From the NCBI RefSeq assembly GCF_024436435.1, contig NZ_JAFMZP010000003.1:372001-436000 (forward strand): DNA of 64,000 nt, in the 5' to 3' direction. Made by a program: the position numbers and the translations under genes. The notes below the pieces were generated by a model. It was given only the letters and a program-made list of their open reading frames with translations, was not told the DNA's origin and made no database searches. Source of the DNA: Desertivirga xinjiangensis. Lineage in GTDB: Bacteria > Bacteroidota > Bacteroidia > Sphingobacteriales > Sphingobacteriaceae. Within the stretch, counting starts at the first letter, position 1; the number at the start of each line of letters is the position of its first letter. Positions 18,322 through 27,500 of the stretch are shown here, piece by piece.

Positions 18322-20523
18322 TTAGGCTGTTTCTGACGCCGGAGCGGACAGATCAATGATAGTTTGGTTCTCAAAATAATTACCTAGGGCATGACTTAGG
18401 CTCGGTAGAAGAAGGCCTTTTTCGCTATGTAATACACTGTATTGTGGTCTTTTAGCAGCAAGGTTGAGTTTTTTGTTCGGAACGCCAATTACCATTGAAG
18501 GATTTACATTGGCATATTTAGCCACTTCGATAGCTAGTTGCGCCCAGGTGATGCTTCCCTGATTAGCAAGGTGCCATATTCCAGATTCATCATCTAGCAG
18601 AAGGTCAAGACTTGCATTTACCAGATCAGGGACATAAGTTGGTGAAACAAAGATATCGTTGGCTGCAGTGAACGAAGTTTTGTTCTTTAAAGAAGTAAGT
18701 ACGTTAGTAACAAAGTTATAATCGTCCCAAGGGCTGAAAAATGCACTTGTTCGTATGATTAAACTGCTGGGAGCTTTCTCGGACACTAGTTTCTCAGCGA
18801 GCGCTTTACTTCTTCCGTACACATTTAAAGGCGATACGGGATCACTTTCTGTATAAGAGCTATTCTTTCGTCCATCAAACACCAGGTCGGAAGAAAATGT
18901 AAGTAATTTAAAATTATACTTCTCAGACAGCAAGGCAAGATTGAGGGGCCCTTGGGTGTTGGCAATGTAACAATCGTTAGAACTAATTTCGGCGTCATCA
19001 ACACGCACAAAGCCTGCGGCATTTATTATTGCCCAGGGCTTTTTTTCCGCAATGACTTTTTCTATTTGACTAGGATCAGCCAGATTAAATTCCTGGCGGC
19101 TTAATAACAGGTAATGAATGCCTCTTAAATCGCATATTCTTGCAAAAGATCTTCCTAAAGTTCCGGTCTTTCCAATAATTAGCAAGGGTTGTGAACCTCT
19201 GTTTTCTGTATTAAGCCTGCGAATGTTGTTCTGAAAATAAAGCACCCGGATATCTTTTTTCCACCAGCCTTTCTCTTCCAGGACCGGGTGGTGAAATTCC
19301 CTTCCATCAGCCAGATGCTTTAACATCCCGGCTAGTGCAGTAGGTCGAGGATGCGGTGATCTCAAATCGAAAATCCCCGGTTCATATTCGACGTTTTTAC
19401 TTGTTAAGAGCTTATTCCAGCCATACGATCCAAGCATTGACCAGGCGGTAATTGCCAAGATGTTAGCACCTTCTTGCTTTAGTTCGCAACAGGTGGTGTA
19501 AATATTTTTTAACCAGCGCATCTGCTCATCCCGGGTGCATCCCAAATGAACTTCAGTAACAGCTATGGGGATTTTAAACCTGTCCCAGGCTTCCTTCAAT
19601 AAAAGCTTTGCTCCATACTCCTCTTCATCAAGATCAACTCTAACAGCTTCAACATCTGCATATTTATGCAGATGATTGCCGCCATGGCTACTTTCGGGGT
19701 ACTTTTGGAGGTTTTCATCCAGGAAACGCTCGGACGTTGGATAGTAATTAAACCCTAAAATATCTACAGGACAGTTTTTCAGTTTGAAGAACCCGAGTTC
19801 CGCCTCGCTAATACCCGACCATAGCAAAAAGCTCCATAAAGGATGCCCGCTGTCGACTTTTCCCATAATCAGATCAAAGCCAAGCCAGCGCCGGTGATTC
19901 TCGAAATCTGCCTGGTATTTTAGCAATGGTGTACTATAAGTTCTGGAAAGGTCTTCAGTTTGGACCAGCTTTGCGTTCGGATTGATTTTCCGGATGGCTT
20001 CCATAGCCAGCACTGTAGCTTTGCATTCATTGATCAATAATTTCAGGAAGCTGGTATTATCTTTTTGATGGGGGTGCCAATGCCCATACAGTCCGCAAAA
20101 CCGTGCGGTAGTTAAGGGTTCATTTACCGGCGTGTAATAATTGATCCAGGGGAATTTTTCTGCAACAAGACTTGCATACTTTGCCAGGCCGGTCGCAAAA
20201 TCATCGGTTTCAATAGATGCATATTTCGGACCGCTGCCATGATGTACTAAGCCGGCAATTGGCTCTACGCCAAGTTCCCTTAAGCGATTAAGATTCCTTT
20301 CGATTGAACCCCATTCTATTGTCTTGTTTTGGGTCGGCTGGTGCTTTTCCCAGATTACTGGATACCTGAGCCGTTTTATTCCCAAACTACATAAGAGTTC
20401 TATGTCTTTCTCCCGGGTGTAATGACCAGCGAAATGTAATTGATCCAGGTATGTATGCCTGACACGGTTAATTGTGCATTCTATTCCACCCCAAACCTCT
20501 ACAGGTTTCGATCCTTCTACCAT
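18322..20523 (-). CDS. Fusion of a GH1-like glycosidase domain and an RmlD-like NAD(P)-dependent sugar reductase domain
   Basis: Two-domain enzyme. Residues about 8-430 resemble a family 1 glycoside hydrolase TIM barrel: NEP at 134-136 supplies the acid/base Glu135, and TEVH gives the candidate nucleophile Glu324. Residues about 446-715 are an extended-SDR domain like dTDP-4-dehydrorhamnose reductase: nucleotide-binding GKTGTLG (451-457), NAAGFVRVDDAE, SSDLVFDG and the YxxxK pair Tyr569/Lys573. There is no predicted signal peptide, so the protein should be cytoplasmic, unusual for a glycoside hydrolase. The downstream-most domain order and the adjacent glycosyltransferase (15 bases upstream, same strand) suggest synthesis or remodelling of an intracellular glycan or nucleotide sugar. 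The substrate is unknown. Confidence 0.85.
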   Translation of the reverse strand: MVEGSKPVEVWGGIECTINRVRHTYLDQLHFAGHYTREKDIELLCSLGIKRLRYPVIWEKHQPTQNKTIEWGSIERNLNRLRELGVEPIAGLVHHGSGPKYASIETDDFATGLAKYASLVAEKFPWINYYTPVNEPLTTARFCGLYGHWHPHQKDNTSFLKLLINECKATVLAMEAIRKINPNAKLVQTEDLSRTYSTPLLKYQADFENHRRWLGFDLIMGKVDSGHPLWSFLLWSGISEAELGFFKLKNCPVDILGFNYYPTSERFLDENLQKYPESSHGGNHLHKYADVEAVRVDLDEEEYGAKLLLKEAWDRFKIPIAVTEVHLGCTRDEQMRWLKNIYTTCCELKQEGANILAITAWSMLGSYGWNKLLTSKNVEYEPGIFDLRSPHPRPTALAGMLKHLADGREFHHPVLEEKGWWKKDIRVLYFQNNIRRLNTENRGSQPLLIIGKTGTLGRSFARICDLRGIHYLLLSRQEFNLADPSQIEKVIAEKKPWAIINAAGFVRVDDAEISSNDCYIANTQGPLNLALLSEKYNFKLLTFSSDLVFDGRKNSSYTESDPVSPLNVYGRSKALAEKLVSEKAPSSLIIRTSAFFSPWDDYNFVTNVLTSLKNKTSFTAANDIFVSPTYVPDLVNASLDLLLDDESGIWHLANQGSITWAQLAIEVAKYANVNPSMVIGVPNKKLNLAAKRPQYSVLHSEKGLLLPSLSHALGNYFENQTIIDLSAPASETA

Positions 20524-20538
20524 AATAAATTTTATTAG

Positions 20539-21678
20539 TTAAGCACTCAACGGAACAGCGACTTTTGAGCCTATTGCTTTCCGGATCAAATCCATCATAT
20601 CCGACCAGGTTTGGTCCCATGATTTGTTTGCAAGGAATGAGTCAACTTCGGTTAACCATTCTTTTCTGGATTTTGTGAGCTCGGATTCGGCTGCTGTTAT
20701 AAATTGTTCGGCATTGTTTACAATGCTTACTAAATTAAGCATGCCATAGGGGTTAATTACATCTCTTATTGGAGTAGATATTACCGGTATCCCTGCGGAA
20801 AGATATTCGGGCGTTTTAGTTGGACTTATATAGCGGGTTGACTCATTTAATAGAAAAGGGATCATTGCAACGTCCCAGCCAGTCAGGTATGAAGGAAGTT
20901 CTTCATAAGACTTTCCTCCTAAATAATGGATGTTCTTGTTTTTCGGAAGTATGTCCGGATTGATTTTGACTACCGGCCCTATAAGAATAAAGTTCCAGTC
21001 GGGGCGGGCACTTGCCACTTTGCCCACTAGCTGGTAGTCGAATCGCTCATCGATAACGCCATAAAATCCGAATTTTTTTCCGCTGATGCCACCCTGATCG
21101 GCAGGCTCAGAAATCTTTTTTCTTGCTTTTGCGAAATGCTTTTTATCGATACTGCTTGGAAAAGGATGAATATTCTGATGCTGGTGTTTTTTTGCTTCGT
21201 ATAATGACTGGCCTCCTGTAAATACTACATCAGCCCTTGTGAGTAATTCTTTTTCAAGATAACTCAGTTCGGTGGGTGCGTTTTTGAATCCAGTAAGCTC
21301 GTCCATACAATCGTAAACCACTAAGCTTGGGAAGTATTCTGCTGAAAACTCCAACGCCATCGGAGTGTAATACCAAAAGATGAAGTCGGATAAGCTTTTC
21401 TCCTTAAGGAAGGTTTTAAGGATTTGCTTTTGTAAATTGGTGTTTTCTTTTTTCCCTTTACCTTCAGGCAAGTGTGGAACTAAAACCCAAAGTTTGTCTT
21501 CACGTTTACTTATTGAAAGGAAACTATCTCCGTCCTTGGGCACGTCAAATACGGGCTCTTCAAAAAAATATACATTAAATTCCCTGGTAAAACGGGTTAA
21601 GAGATGTTGTGGTCGTTGAAATACAAAATCCCAACGCAGATGAGAAAATACTAGTAAATTTTCTGGGACACGTTTCAT
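20539..21678 (-). CDS. Glycosyltransferase, GT4/GT1-like (GT-B fold)
   Basis: Cytoplasmic GT-B-type transferase. The N-terminal half starts with a typical FSHLRWDFVFQRPQHLL string; the C-terminal nucleotide-sugar site includes GVIDERFDYQL, IGPVVKI and a late SPTKTPEYLSAGIPVIST stretch (about 275-293) that matches the GT4 donor-site motif. Length 379 aa is usual. It is the first gene of a two-gene operon with the GH1-RmlD fusion gene. Similar pairs accompany UDP-galactopyranose mutase genes in some bacteria; no such gene is in this window. The acceptor and donor are unknown; a surface or storage polysaccharide is the likely product. Confidence 0.85.
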   Translation of the reverse strand: MKRVPENLLVFSHLRWDFVFQRPQHLLTRFTREFNVYFFEEPVFDVPKDGDSFLSISKREDKLWVLVPHLPEGKGKKENTNLQKQILKTFLKEKSLSDFIFWYYTPMALEFSAEYFPSLVVYDCMDELTGFKNAPTELSYLEKELLTRADVVFTGGQSLYEAKKHQHQNIHPFPSSIDKKHFAKARKKISEPADQGGISGKKFGFYGVIDERFDYQLVGKVASARPDWNFILIGPVVKINPDILPKNKNIHYLGGKSYEELPSYLTGWDVAMIPFLLNESTRYISPTKTPEYLSAGIPVISTPIRDVINPYGMLNLVSIVNNAEQFITAAESELTKSRKEWLTEVDSFLANKSWDQTWSDMMDLIRKAIGSKVAVPLSA

Positions 21679-21803: not shown

Positions 21804-23339
21804 TCAGGGCACAGTTATTACTGCTATATTTGATTCAATACTTTCGTTTTTTAGCCTGTCAAGTGCTGTAACCACATAGCTATACTGCATTCCCTTTTGC
21901 GAAGTGAAGTCAGTATATGAAGTGACTTGTTTATCAAAACTTATCTTTAAAATCTTCGATGGATCTTGTAAGTTCGCTTGTTCACCGGCATTAAAACGGT
22001 AAACCACATATCCATATGCAGTTTCTCCGTCGCGGGCCTTTAGTGGTTCTGTCCAATTCAGGACGACAAACTGTTCTGCAAGGGTAGCTTGTAAATTTAA
22101 GGGAGCCATAGGCGGGACATCGTCAAGCCAGATCATTTGAGGGGGTAATGATGGATAGTTGTATAAGTCATTACGAAGGGAGTCTTGAAACCCTGCCAGA
22201 TTATTTGTTAATGATTTGGAACTGAAGTAGACGCTTCCCTGCACCCGCGGATTCCGGCGGAGATAACGGACCTGATTTGGAAGCTGCTTCCAATCCAGCC
22301 AGCCTTCACGTCTTTCGGTTGCTCTATAAGCGGCTTGTCCGATATAGACATGTCTTCCGAAGGCATTGTTGCTCCACCAGTCAACCAGTTTCTCGTAAGG
22401 GGCCGCTCTGTAGAAGAAAGGAAAATATATCTGGGGGTTAACATAGTCGATCCAGCCTTCCTGGACCCATTTCCTGGCATCCCCGTAAAGGACGCTATAG
22501 CCTGACAGTCCTGAGCTTTCTGAACCTTCGGTATTCTGGCTTTTGTTCTGCCATATACCGAAAGGACTTATGCCAAATTTTACAAATCGTTTGACACTAT
22601 GGATACTGTCTGATAACTCTTTGATCAGTAGATCCACATTGTTACGGCGCCAGTCGGCAATATTATCGAAATCTTGCCCATACAACCGAAATTGTTCGCC
22701 ATCGGGTATGCTATGGTTCTTTTCCGGATAGGGATAGAAATAATCATCAAAATGAACGCCGTCGATGTCATAATTCTTCACTACGTCCAATACTACCTGT
22801 ACGATATAGTCTCGGACTTGTGGAATGCCAGGATTGAACAGTTTTTTTCCTGCGTAAGTGAAGAACCATTCGGGACGTTGCCGGGTGATATGATCTGATG
22901 TAACATCCGAAGGTGAAAGTGTAAACGTTGCACGGTAGGGATTGAACCAGGCATGGAGTTCCATACCTCTTTTATGTGCTTCGTTAATTGCAAATTCCAG
23001 AGGATCGTAATAGGGGGAAGGAGCCTGCCCCTGTTTGCCTGTAAGAAATTTGCTCCAGGGTTCCTTGCCTTTTGCATACAATGCATCTGTCGCCGGCCGG
23101 ATTTGAAGCAACACGGCGTTTAAGCCACTTTCCTGGTGTTCGTCCAATATTCTAATCAACTCATTTTGTTGCAGGGTTCCAGACAGACCTTGTTTAGAGG
23201 GCCAGTCAATATTCGCAACACTTGCTATCCAAACGCCTCGAAATTCCCTTTTGGGGGGTAATTGTGAAGGTGATTGTGCGGAAATTGATCCTTGTAACAC
23301 AAACGATATGGAGATCAGTGATAATAATCGTACGAACAT
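21804..23339 (-). CDS. Secreted glycoside hydrolase-like protein, GHL10 (DUF187/YngK-like) with C-terminal FnIII domain
   Basis: Exported TIM-barrel protein of the GHL10 family. A signal peptide (about 1-21, ending SAQ) is followed by the family start FRGVWIASVANIDWP, the barrel (about 30-400; LLQIRPATDALY, ELHAWFNPYR, GVHFDDYFYPYP) and a fibronectin type III-like domain (about 415-510). The DDYF stretch after the conserved GVHFDD probably contributes acidic active-site residues. Some relatives act on peptidoglycan or glycans, but activities are little defined. It is monocistronic, transcribed from its own promoter, and lies downstream in sequence order of the glycosyltransferase without forming an obvious operon with it. 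Confidence 0.88.
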   Translation of the reverse strand: MFVRLLSLISISFVLQGSISAQSPSQLPPKREFRGVWIASVANIDWPSKQGLSGTLQQNELIRILDEHQESGLNAVLLQIRPATDALYAKGKEPWSKFLTGKQGQAPSPYYDPLEFAINEAHKRGMELHAWFNPYRATFTLSPSDVTSDHITRQRPEWFFTYAGKKLFNPGIPQVRDYIVQVVLDVVKNYDIDGVHFDDYFYPYPEKNHSIPDGEQFRLYGQDFDNIADWRRNNVDLLIKELSDSIHSVKRFVKFGISPFGIWQNKSQNTEGSESSGLSGYSVLYGDARKWVQEGWIDYVNPQIYFPFFYRAAPYEKLVDWWSNNAFGRHVYIGQAAYRATERREGWLDWKQLPNQVRYLRRNPRVQGSVYFSSKSLTNNLAGFQDSLRNDLYNYPSLPPQMIWLDDVPPMAPLNLQATLAEQFVVLNWTEPLKARDGETAYGYVVYRFNAGEQANLQDPSKILKISFDKQVTSYTDFTSQKGMQYSYVVTALDRLKNESIESNIAVITVP

Positions 23340-24577: not shown

Positions 24578-27500
24578 TCAGAAAAAAGCCCTGAACTGCA
24601 AAGAACCGGTGTGTATTGTTCTTACAGCTTCCGATTTCCTTCCTTCATATCCAATATTAAGCTGTACTCCCTGTGTTATCGTACGCTGGAGCCCTGCCGT
24701 CCAGATGATATTATTGCCTGTCTGCAGGCCTTCCAGCATCTCAAAGGACAAGGAAGTATTAGGAGTTCCTTTAAATTTATTTTTTACGAGATTGATGCCT
24801 GAATTGATGGTGCCTTTGCGCAAAATATTATACCGAATATCAGATCCCACCTTGTAATTTGTTGATTCTTCTTTACTGTTTATTTGGTTGTTTTGTTGTG
24901 TAATGGATCCGTTAAAGCTAAGACGCATATTGTTGTTAAACTGATAATTTATTTCAGGCAAAAATTCCAGGAAGTTGATCTGATAGTTTTTTTCAGTGAA
25001 TAGTTCTGACCGGTATTTTTTAATGCCCCGTTTTGTCTCCAGAACGAAATTGGTCTTTTGTATATTCCATCGAAGTCTTACACCGCCTTCATTTCTGTTT
25101 CGGGTATCGAAGCCATTAATAAGTAATAATTTATTTCCGGAAGTTTGATAGTTAAGATCAATACCGTAAACAGGGCTATTCCTGTTTATAAATAAAGTAT
25201 TTCTCAAAAACGTGTTATCTGATATAAGATGTACAGCAGCGACACCCGCAAATGGATTGTAAGCCTGGAAGCCTTTTACGCCACTGGTCTTTCTTTCAGT
25301 TTTAAACGCAGTTTGGCTGGAAAATAGACTGAGGAACTTCTGGAATCCCGCTTTTCTTTTCCACAATAGGGCCGGGCTTAGGCGAAGTGTATAATTTGCC
25401 GTTGTATAATCAGTGTTGATAAATTCGTTTGTATTTTGGTATATACGGATGTACTTTGCCTGATCCTGAAACCGGGCTATTTCAAATTCATTTAGTTCTT
25501 TTATTGCATTTTGATTATAGTCGTTCCATGTATAAGCACCCTGGCCAGTAATCACTTCAAGATAAGAGAACTCGCGTTTTGGTTCTCGCCCCGGACCTAA
25601 TTCATAAAAAATATTGCTATTTACAAAGCCTTTTAATAAGCTTAGGGTATAATCTATTCGTCCCAAAAGCGTGTTTTCATTGTCGTTCGCTATATGCTCG
25701 GCGTATTTAACATCACGATAAGTAGAAGTAATTGTTAGTACAGAGTTTGGGTTCGCTGATAGGTTGACCTCTCCTGAAATGATGTTTGCAAGAGACGAAT
25801 TAAGCAGTTTTGATTGTGAAGGCAGCTGGTCATAACGTTTGCTATACTCGATCCTGGCAGAATTGCCAGATCCGAAATTTGAGACCAGATAAGCTTTGTA
25901 CTGATCAAACGCGAAACTGTTCAGCGCCAGGAAACCGTCTTCCTGCTTTGTCCGATTTAGCTCCTGTTCGAAGTTGATACCGGCTATAAAGGCCTTAAAC
26001 TGACGGCTAAGATCTGCCTGTTGCCGGAAAAAGCTTCCCCTATTAAGCACCGAAGATGAGTTCAAAATATTCCCGGAGTAGCGTATCCGGTACTTTCGCC
26101 AGTCGTAAGACCCATTGAGACTGTTTTGATATCCGGTGTAAATGTTTTCCTTGATAAACGTATTGAACTGGTAGTTGAGGTTCTTTGAAATATCTTTAAA
26201 GAGGCTGAAGGCCACACTGGCTAAATGTTCGTTTTTAAGGGAAGGTAGGCCATGCAGATTAAAGTCGCGTTCAAATTCGACGGGCCGATACCGTTCTATA
26301 GGTTTAAAAGCCGATGATGTCCGTTCGTAACTTGCACTTGTTATTAAGCGCGTAGCCAGGCTGTCCTGCTTCCCAAGCCGTGACTCGTTTTTTGCGTAAA
26401 GCTTCAGTGCGAACCCTTGATTTTGTTTATTTCCGATGTCTGAAAAAAGATTTACATCATTGTTGCTTAAAGCCACTTCCGAACTGATAAGCGTGTTCGC
26501 GGATAGCTTATAGTCGGTGCCGAGCGTAATGAGCTGTTGTTTTTTAGGGGTAATAAGCAGCGTAACGGGTTCATAGCTGCCTTGTTTGTTTCCAGCAACT
26601 GGCGGAACATACTCGAACACTCTTCCATTAGCCGCTGAGTTTGGCTTTAACTGATAATTACCATTATTCGATCCCACATATGAAAAGCCAAGTCTGTATT
26701 TGGCCAGAGCTGGGTCGATGCTTTGCACGTAAACTCCGGTGCCACCCAATGTGTCAATTTGCTTGTACAGGATTTCATTGTCATTAAAGGTTACAGTGTC
26801 GACGTTCGGGAAGTAAGCCTGATTGATGTTATTGCCCACCGCCTGTAAAAAGCCCTTTTGTTCGTTTGTGATTTCCTGAAGAAAAGGCTGGTTCCGGTTA
26901 TCCTGCTCGTTGTAGTAATTGAGTTTAATGGCAAAGCGCGACTTAGAAATCTCCTGGTTGAAGTAACTGAGTGTGCGGGCGTAGTTTTTGTCTGAGTACT
27001 CGAATTCTACAATTATCCGGCTGTTTTGAGTGATAAGTCGTCTCGCCGTAAAGGTTATCTCAGCCGTATTGTAATCAATGACGTAGTCGTTTTCCTGACC
27101 TCTTTTTGCCAGGAGACCATCTACAAACACCCTTTCTGTTCCTGAAAGTACTATGATCGATTGCTCGCCATTGCTGCCTGTGATTCGGTAAGGTCCCTGG
27201 TTTCCCTCGATGCCGTTTATCGAAATACGGGATGATCTGCCCTTTGCCACGGCCGCGGAAACACTGGTTTTGTAGTTCCAGCCCTTCTTTGAGAAAAACT
27301 GGGTAGAAAAGGAGCCTCCTTGTGTTCTTTTGTAGAAGTTCATGAAATAACTGTCGGGCCTTCTTAGCTCAAAATCACCTCCGGTGAGCGAAGCGTTCTT
27401 ACGCTTTAACTGAATAAAGACTTTGTCGAAGTCGTTTATCTGCTGAGTGTTCCCTTCGGGCTGAATTGGAATATTATCATCAGATATCGCTGCAAGAATT

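What the first reader, a model, noticed from the sequence alone, without database searches (positions are those of the whole stretch)
18322..21678. Cytosolic GH1-like/RmlD-like fusion enzyme coupled to a glycosyltransferase
One polypeptide joins a TIM-barrel glycosidase-like domain with both catalytic Glu residues (135, 324) and a sugar-nucleotide reductase domain with an intact nucleotide loop and YxxxK pair. There is no signal peptide. A hydrolase and a reductase in one cytoplasmic protein beside a glycosyltransferase suggests an undescribed glycan or glycoside pathway, perhaps trimming then reducing, or a GH1 domain acting as a transglycosidase.
Basis: partly seen in the sequence, partly recalled or inferred. 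Interest (0 to 1): 0.6.

Follow-up and report, generated by a model that had tools for sequence, protein, structure and literature searches.

The report
Two-enzyme sugar protein in mobile cluster
This gene makes one soluble protein that joins a sugar-cutting (or sugar-transferring) enzyme to a sugar-reducing enzyme; the same fused protein is found in very different bacteria, usually with a sugar-attaching enzyme and often with an enzyme that makes furanose galactose, so it probably belongs to an undescribed pathway for a galactose-based product whose chemistry has not been tested.

Summary
ORF 18322-20523(-) is one 733-aa protein: a divergent GH1 barrel (E135, E324) followed by an RmlD-type reductase (S545, Y569, K573). 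A glycosyltransferase ORF lies 15 bp upstream. There is no signal peptide and no sequencing-error fusion: 87 aligned sequences (others 43-74% identical to it) carry both domains. AlphaFold gives pLDDT 91.9, pTM 0.91; Foldseek matches RmlD (TM 0.93) and GH1 (TM about 0.7).

The protein is the signature of a conserved, patchy, apparently horizontally moving module in Bacteroidota, Cyanobacteria, Deinococcus, Acidobacteriota, Chloroflexi and Proteobacteria. Of 75 loci, 63 have the same glycosyltransferase and 51 have glf (UDP-galactopyranose mutase), 25 as a GT-Glf fusion; galE/galK/galT often lie nearby. The window lacks a linked glf.

Rhizobial modules keep GT-Glf-GH1 but have lost or decayed the reductase, so GH1 is the constant part. 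Best reading: a cytosolic pathway making a galactose/galactofuranose glycoside or glycan, with GH1 as transglycosidase or editing glycosidase and RmlD as a sugar 4-ketoreductase. Chemistry is inferred, not shown. An EcfG-like promoter motif and desiccation-prone hosts hint at a stress role. I found no published description. New variant of a known kind.

The parts
20539..21678 (-). Glycosyltransferase, GT group 1 (GT4-like), distant TuaH relative; C-terminal SPTKTPEYLSAGIPV motif, E291
   Evidence: Pfam PF13692 27.4 bits (cut-off 27); NCBIfam TuaH 86.5 bits, far below cut-off 550; same GT in 63/75 homologous loci; motif
18322..20523 (-). GH1-RmlD fusion protein, 733 aa, cytosolic
19240..20523 (-). 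GH1 (beta/alpha)8 half, about residues 1-428; acid/base E135 (NEP), nucleophile E324 (TEV); the canonical FEW glutamate position is G368 here (D or G in family)
   Evidence: PF00232 residues 34-371; profile vs GH1 beta-glucosidases E 1e-22; residue counts; Foldseek TM about 0.7
18418..19185 (-). RmlD-type NAD(P)-dependent 4-ketoreductase half, residues 447-702; GxxGxxG 451-457, S545, Y569, K573
   Evidence: PF04321 208 bits; TIGR01214 205 bits, below equivalog cut-off 224.05; TM 0.93 to 1vl0

Best explanation
The protein is the bifunctional enzyme of a mobile, conserved GT-(Glf)-GH1/RmlD module that assembles a galactose- or galactofuranose-containing glycoside, glycolipid or glycan in the cytosol. 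Shown: the fusion, intact catalytic residues in both halves, the linked GT, and the recurrent link to Glf and Leloir genes. Inferred: the GT attaches a sugar (UDP-Galf where glf is present; another nucleotide sugar, or UDP-Galf from elsewhere in this genome); the GH1 half then acts on that product as a retaining transglycosidase, or as an editing glycosidase; the RmlD half reduces a 4-keto sugar, either nucleotide-bound or already attached, to give the final sugar. The product is probably a stress or desiccation-related glycoconjugate.
For: Module: of 75 loci with at least 3 kb upstream, GT within 3.5 kb in 63, Glf in 51, GT-Glf in one polypeptide in 25, galE in 14, galK or galT in the locus in 21 (domains checked). 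Mesorhizobium and Ensifer have overlapping or adjacent GT-glf-GH1 ORFs. Horizontal spread: sparse in Bacteroidota (5 of 297 genomes, one of them GH1 only) yet full length at 43-55% in Cyanobacteria, Deinococcus, Alpha- and Betaproteobacteria; module Glf of a Mucilaginibacter MAG and of a Deinococcus are 71% identical, against about 40% to this genome's own Glfs. Both halves under constraint: E135, E324 and S/T545 87/87, K573 86/87, Y569 84/87; pairwise distances of the halves correlate, r = 0.89. Confident two-domain model. A cytosolic GH1 transglycosidase and an SDR 4-ketoreductase acting on an attached keto sugar, as separate proteins, are published in soapwort (PMC11782082). Stress: EcfG-like GGAAC-N17/18-GTT upstream of the first module gene in 4 of 6 alphaproteobacterial loci against about 0.03 expected each; Mn-catalase, DUF892 and ligD neighbours.
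Against: No substrate or activity is known. The window has no linked glf, and 24 of 75 loci lack a linked Glf, so galactofuranose is not obligatory. The genomes tested carry a separate stand-alone rmlD and rmlB, so the reductase half is not needed for ordinary dTDP-rhamnose and its substrate is open. The reductase half is lost in some modules. The stress link rests on a motif in few genomes and on habitat impressions.
Confidence: 0.5

Rival explanations
1. Catabolic or recycling role: the GH1 half hydrolyses an imported or turned-over galactoside in the cytosol and the module belongs to galactose utilisation; the RmlD half reduces a keto-sugar by-product.
For: GH2, galK, galT, GH43 near many loci; Flavobacterium MAG L088 has galT-galK-GH2 beside the fusion without GT or Glf.
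Against: The commonest partners are biosynthetic (GT in 63/75, Glf in 51/75); no recurrent transporter family stood out among neighbours.
Confidence: 0.2
2. The RmlD half is not an enzyme but an NAD(P)-binding regulatory or scaffold domain, as in MAT2B; the GH1 half does the chemistry.
For: Dispensable or decayed in rhizobia; Caballeronia lost YxxxK; Foldseek also hits MAT2B; below the RmlD equivalog cut-off.
Against: S/T545 87/87, Y569 84/87, K573 86/87; best structural matches are RmlD reductases at TM up to 0.93.
Confidence: 0.15
3. Ordinary exopolysaccharide or O-antigen genes: the fusion makes dTDP-L-rhamnose for a nearby GT, with the GH1 half as a relic or a quality-control glycosidase.
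For: RmlD domain match 208 bits; rmlB over cut-off in 23 of 24 genomes.
Against: No polymerase, flippase or rmlA/B/C family recurs among the neighbours; a separate rmlD over cut-off in 14/14 genomes; GH1 catalytic residues are invariant and GH1 is the part that is kept when RmlD is lost.
Confidence: 0.12

Closest known systems
GH1 beta-glucosidases (e.g. 2o9p, 5wka, 9uct)
   Same: Barrel fold, NEP acid/base and TE nucleophile, conserved His, Asn, Tyr and Trp of the active site
   Different: About 16-20% identity; TEVH in the window instead of TENG; FEW glutamate replaced by Asp or Gly, so the -1 sugar is probably not glucose; fused to a reductase
RmlD, dTDP-4-dehydrorhamnose reductase (1vl0, 3sc6, 4wpg)
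   Same: Fold (TM 0.93), nucleotide loop, S/T-Y-K triad
   Different: C-terminal half of a fusion; window copy below the equivalog cut-off; genomes have their own rmlD
Soapwort saponin pathway: SoGH1 cytosolic transglycosidase, and SDR 4-ketoreductase of the FucSyn type (PMC11782082)
   Same: Works-alike: a cytosolic GH1 adds a deoxysugar, an SDR reduces an attached 4-keto sugar, with GTs
   Different: Plant, separate proteins, acyl-sugar donor likely, no Glf; relatedness to this family not tested here
Plant SFR2 (GH1 galactolipid galactosyltransferase; from memory)
   Same: GH1 used as a galactosyl transferase under freezing or dehydration stress
   Different: Lipid substrate, plastid protein, no reductase; not compared by sequence here
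TuaH (teichuronic acid biosynthesis GT)
   Same: The adjacent GT is a distant relative
   Different: 86.5 bits against a cut-off of 550

Membership tests
GH1 | Pfam Glyco_hydro_1 above cut-off | tested here: met
   47.2 vs 22.6 bits
GH1 | (beta/alpha)8 fold with two catalytic Glu (NEP, TE) | tested here: met
GH1 | Canonical TENG and FEW sugar-binding motifs of beta-glucosidases | tested here: not met
   TEVH in the window; FEW Glu aligns with D/G368
GH1 | Retaining beta-glycosidase or transglycosidase activity | not testable with these tools
   needs enzyme assay
RmlD | Pfam RmlD_sub_bind and catalytic S/T-Y-K with nucleotide loop | tested here: met
   208 bits; residues
RmlD | Equivalog TIGR01214 over cut-off 224.05 | tested here: not met
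   205 bits; a few related fusions just exceed it
RmlD | Reduces dTDP-4-dehydrorhamnose | not testable with these tools
   needs enzyme assay
TuaH | NCBIfam TuaH over cut-off | tested here: not met
   86.5 vs 550 bits
GT-Glf-GH1/RmlD module (defined here) | GT adjacent to the fusion | tested here: met
   15-bp gap in the window; 63/75 loci
GT-Glf-GH1/RmlD module (defined here) | glf in the same operon | tested here: not met
   absent in the window; 51/75 in relatives; this genome's glfs are elsewhere

The most novel reading that the evidence does not exclude
A horizontally spread stress pathway in which a GH1 transglycosidase and a 4-ketoreductase, fused in one bacterial protein, build or remodel a galactofuranose-containing protective glycoconjugate inside the cytosol: a bacterial counterpart of the GH1-plus-ketoreductase chemistry known in plant saponins.
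Probability: 0.2. Interest if true: 0.8.

Novelty: new variant of a known kind. Interest (0 to 1): 0.52.

Why it matters
The family is annotated mostly as 'family 1 glycosylhydrolase', which hides a second enzyme and a conserved gene partnership. A cytosolic hydrolase-fold enzyme tied to Glf and a GT points to synthesis rather than degradation and would be a bacterial case of GH1-based glycan assembly; many hosts are desert, soil-crust or otherwise desiccation-prone bacteria.

Tried and rejected
Sequencing-error or assembly fusion: rejected. One-sided pseudo-enzyme: rejected for most homologues, true for a few. Linked glf in the window: not there; both glf genes of the genome are distant and of another subfamily. 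Absence of rmlB or rmlD as proof of a non-rhamnose substrate: failed, both are present. Literature on this fusion: ten searches found nothing on it; only the analogy in PMC11782082. The strict EcfG consensus GGAAC-N16/17-CGTT matched only one of the alphaproteobacterial upstream regions, the relaxed form four of six loci.

Full report
The observation. The fusion is 733 aa; Pfam places GH1 at 34-371 and RmlD at 447-702, both above cut-off. The GT ends 15 bp before the fusion starts, on the same strand, so co-transcription is likely. Neither protein has a signal peptide by hydropathy.

It is a real fused protein. In the same genus and family the frame is intact at 54-74% identity. A genome scan gave at least 593 pattern matches, 80 loci kept. 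Across 87 aligned fusions the two glutamates are invariant, S/T545 invariant, K573 in 86 and Y569 in 84. Sampling caveat: the scan used GH1 peptide patterns ([GT]L[VL]HHGSGP, P[VI]NEPLTTA) and kept the best matches, so full-length fusions are favoured and the HH/NEP residues are partly conserved by construction; E324 and the RmlD residues are independent of that. Pairwise distances in the two halves correlate at r = 0.89, as expected for halves inherited together.

Structure. AlphaFold2 on 54 sequences gave pLDDT 91.9 and pTM 0.91. Foldseek finds RmlD at TM 0.93 (1vl0) and GH1 beta-glucosidases at about 0.7 with roughly 16-20% identity. The profile of the GH1 half matches GH1 beta-glucosidases at E = 1e-22. 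The glutamate of the FEW motif, which in beta-glucosidases binds the -1 glucose (established knowledge of GH1), is Asp in 52 and Gly in 34 of 87, so the sugar recognised is probably not glucose (inference).

Neighbourhood. Of 75 loci with enough flank, 63 have the GT within 3.5 kb and 51 a Glf; 25 of these are a single GT-Glf protein of about 800 aa; galE lies close in 14 and galK or galT in the locus in 21 (Pfam confirmation). The window belongs to the 12 loci with GT but no linked Glf. Its genome has two Glfs, 96% identical to each other, elsewhere in the genome (one clearly among other glycosyltransferase genes), about 40% identical to the module Glf. Module Glfs of a Mucilaginibacter MAG and a Deinococcus are 71% identical to each other, and only 5 of 297 Bacteroidota genomes passed the threshold, one with the GH1 half only: patchy, and most simply explained by horizontal transfer.

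Which half matters. In Ensifer the module is GT-glf-GH1 with no reductase; in two Mesorhizobium strains the tail looks like a decayed RmlD. A further Bacteroidota genome (G308) has the GH1 half alone, near a Mn-catalase gene. So GH1 is the constant element and the reductase an accessory that can be lost.

Mechanism. The linked genes are mostly synthetic, which argues that the GH1 half makes or edits a glycoside rather than digesting food. The published soapwort case shows that a cytosolic GH1 can be a transglycosidase and that an SDR can reduce a 4-keto sugar after attachment (PMC11782082). I therefore favour GT transfer, GH1 transglycosylation or editing, and RmlD ketoreduction; the order and the substrates are inferred. 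A separate rmlD (14/14 genomes) and rmlB (23/24 over cut-off) mean the fusion is not the housekeeping RmlD.

Physiology. A motif like the EcfG general-stress promoter stands 69-128 bp upstream of the first gene in 4 of 6 alphaproteobacterial loci against about 0.03 expected each; the strict consensus fits only one of them. Neighbours in some loci include DUF892, Mn-catalase and ligD. Many hosts are desert or soil-crust organisms by name. This is suggestive only: the motif was looked for after seeing the neighbours, and the relaxed form was used.

Verdict. Real, conserved, and undescribed in the literature library searched; both parts are known enzyme kinds; the combination and the module are the new variant. 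The chemistry needs the bench.

Noticed in passing
L009, L033, L040, L043, L044, L046-L048, L052-L056, L068 and others: GT and Glf fused into one protein of about 800 aa in Cyanobacteria and Segetibacter (25 of 75 loci); Pfam on L068 confirms GT group 1 plus GLF.
   Followed up: partly
L024:6268-7485, L026, L031, L037, L070, L089:12132-13337; G000:C21:719276-720388: A second, stand-alone GH1 paralogue of about 405 aa stands beside the module, divergent in most and directly downstream in Aquiflexum (L089); a homologue is unlinked in this genome.
   Followed up: partly
L063:3045-4190, L051:6118-7239: ORFs of 373-381 aa (FMGGFECST...) that BLAST-cluster with the GH1 group but match no Pfam family, near GH2 and galT in Microcoleus.
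   Followed up: partly
L013:17382-19808 and 24663-25817: An Azospirillum thermophilum plasmid carries two fusion-type genes, an annotated beta-glucosidase and glf within about 15 kb.
   Followed up: no
window 21804-23339: GHL10 glycosyl hydrolase-like protein with a signal-like N-terminus just upstream of the GT on the same strand; no evidence that it belongs to the module.
   Followed up: partly
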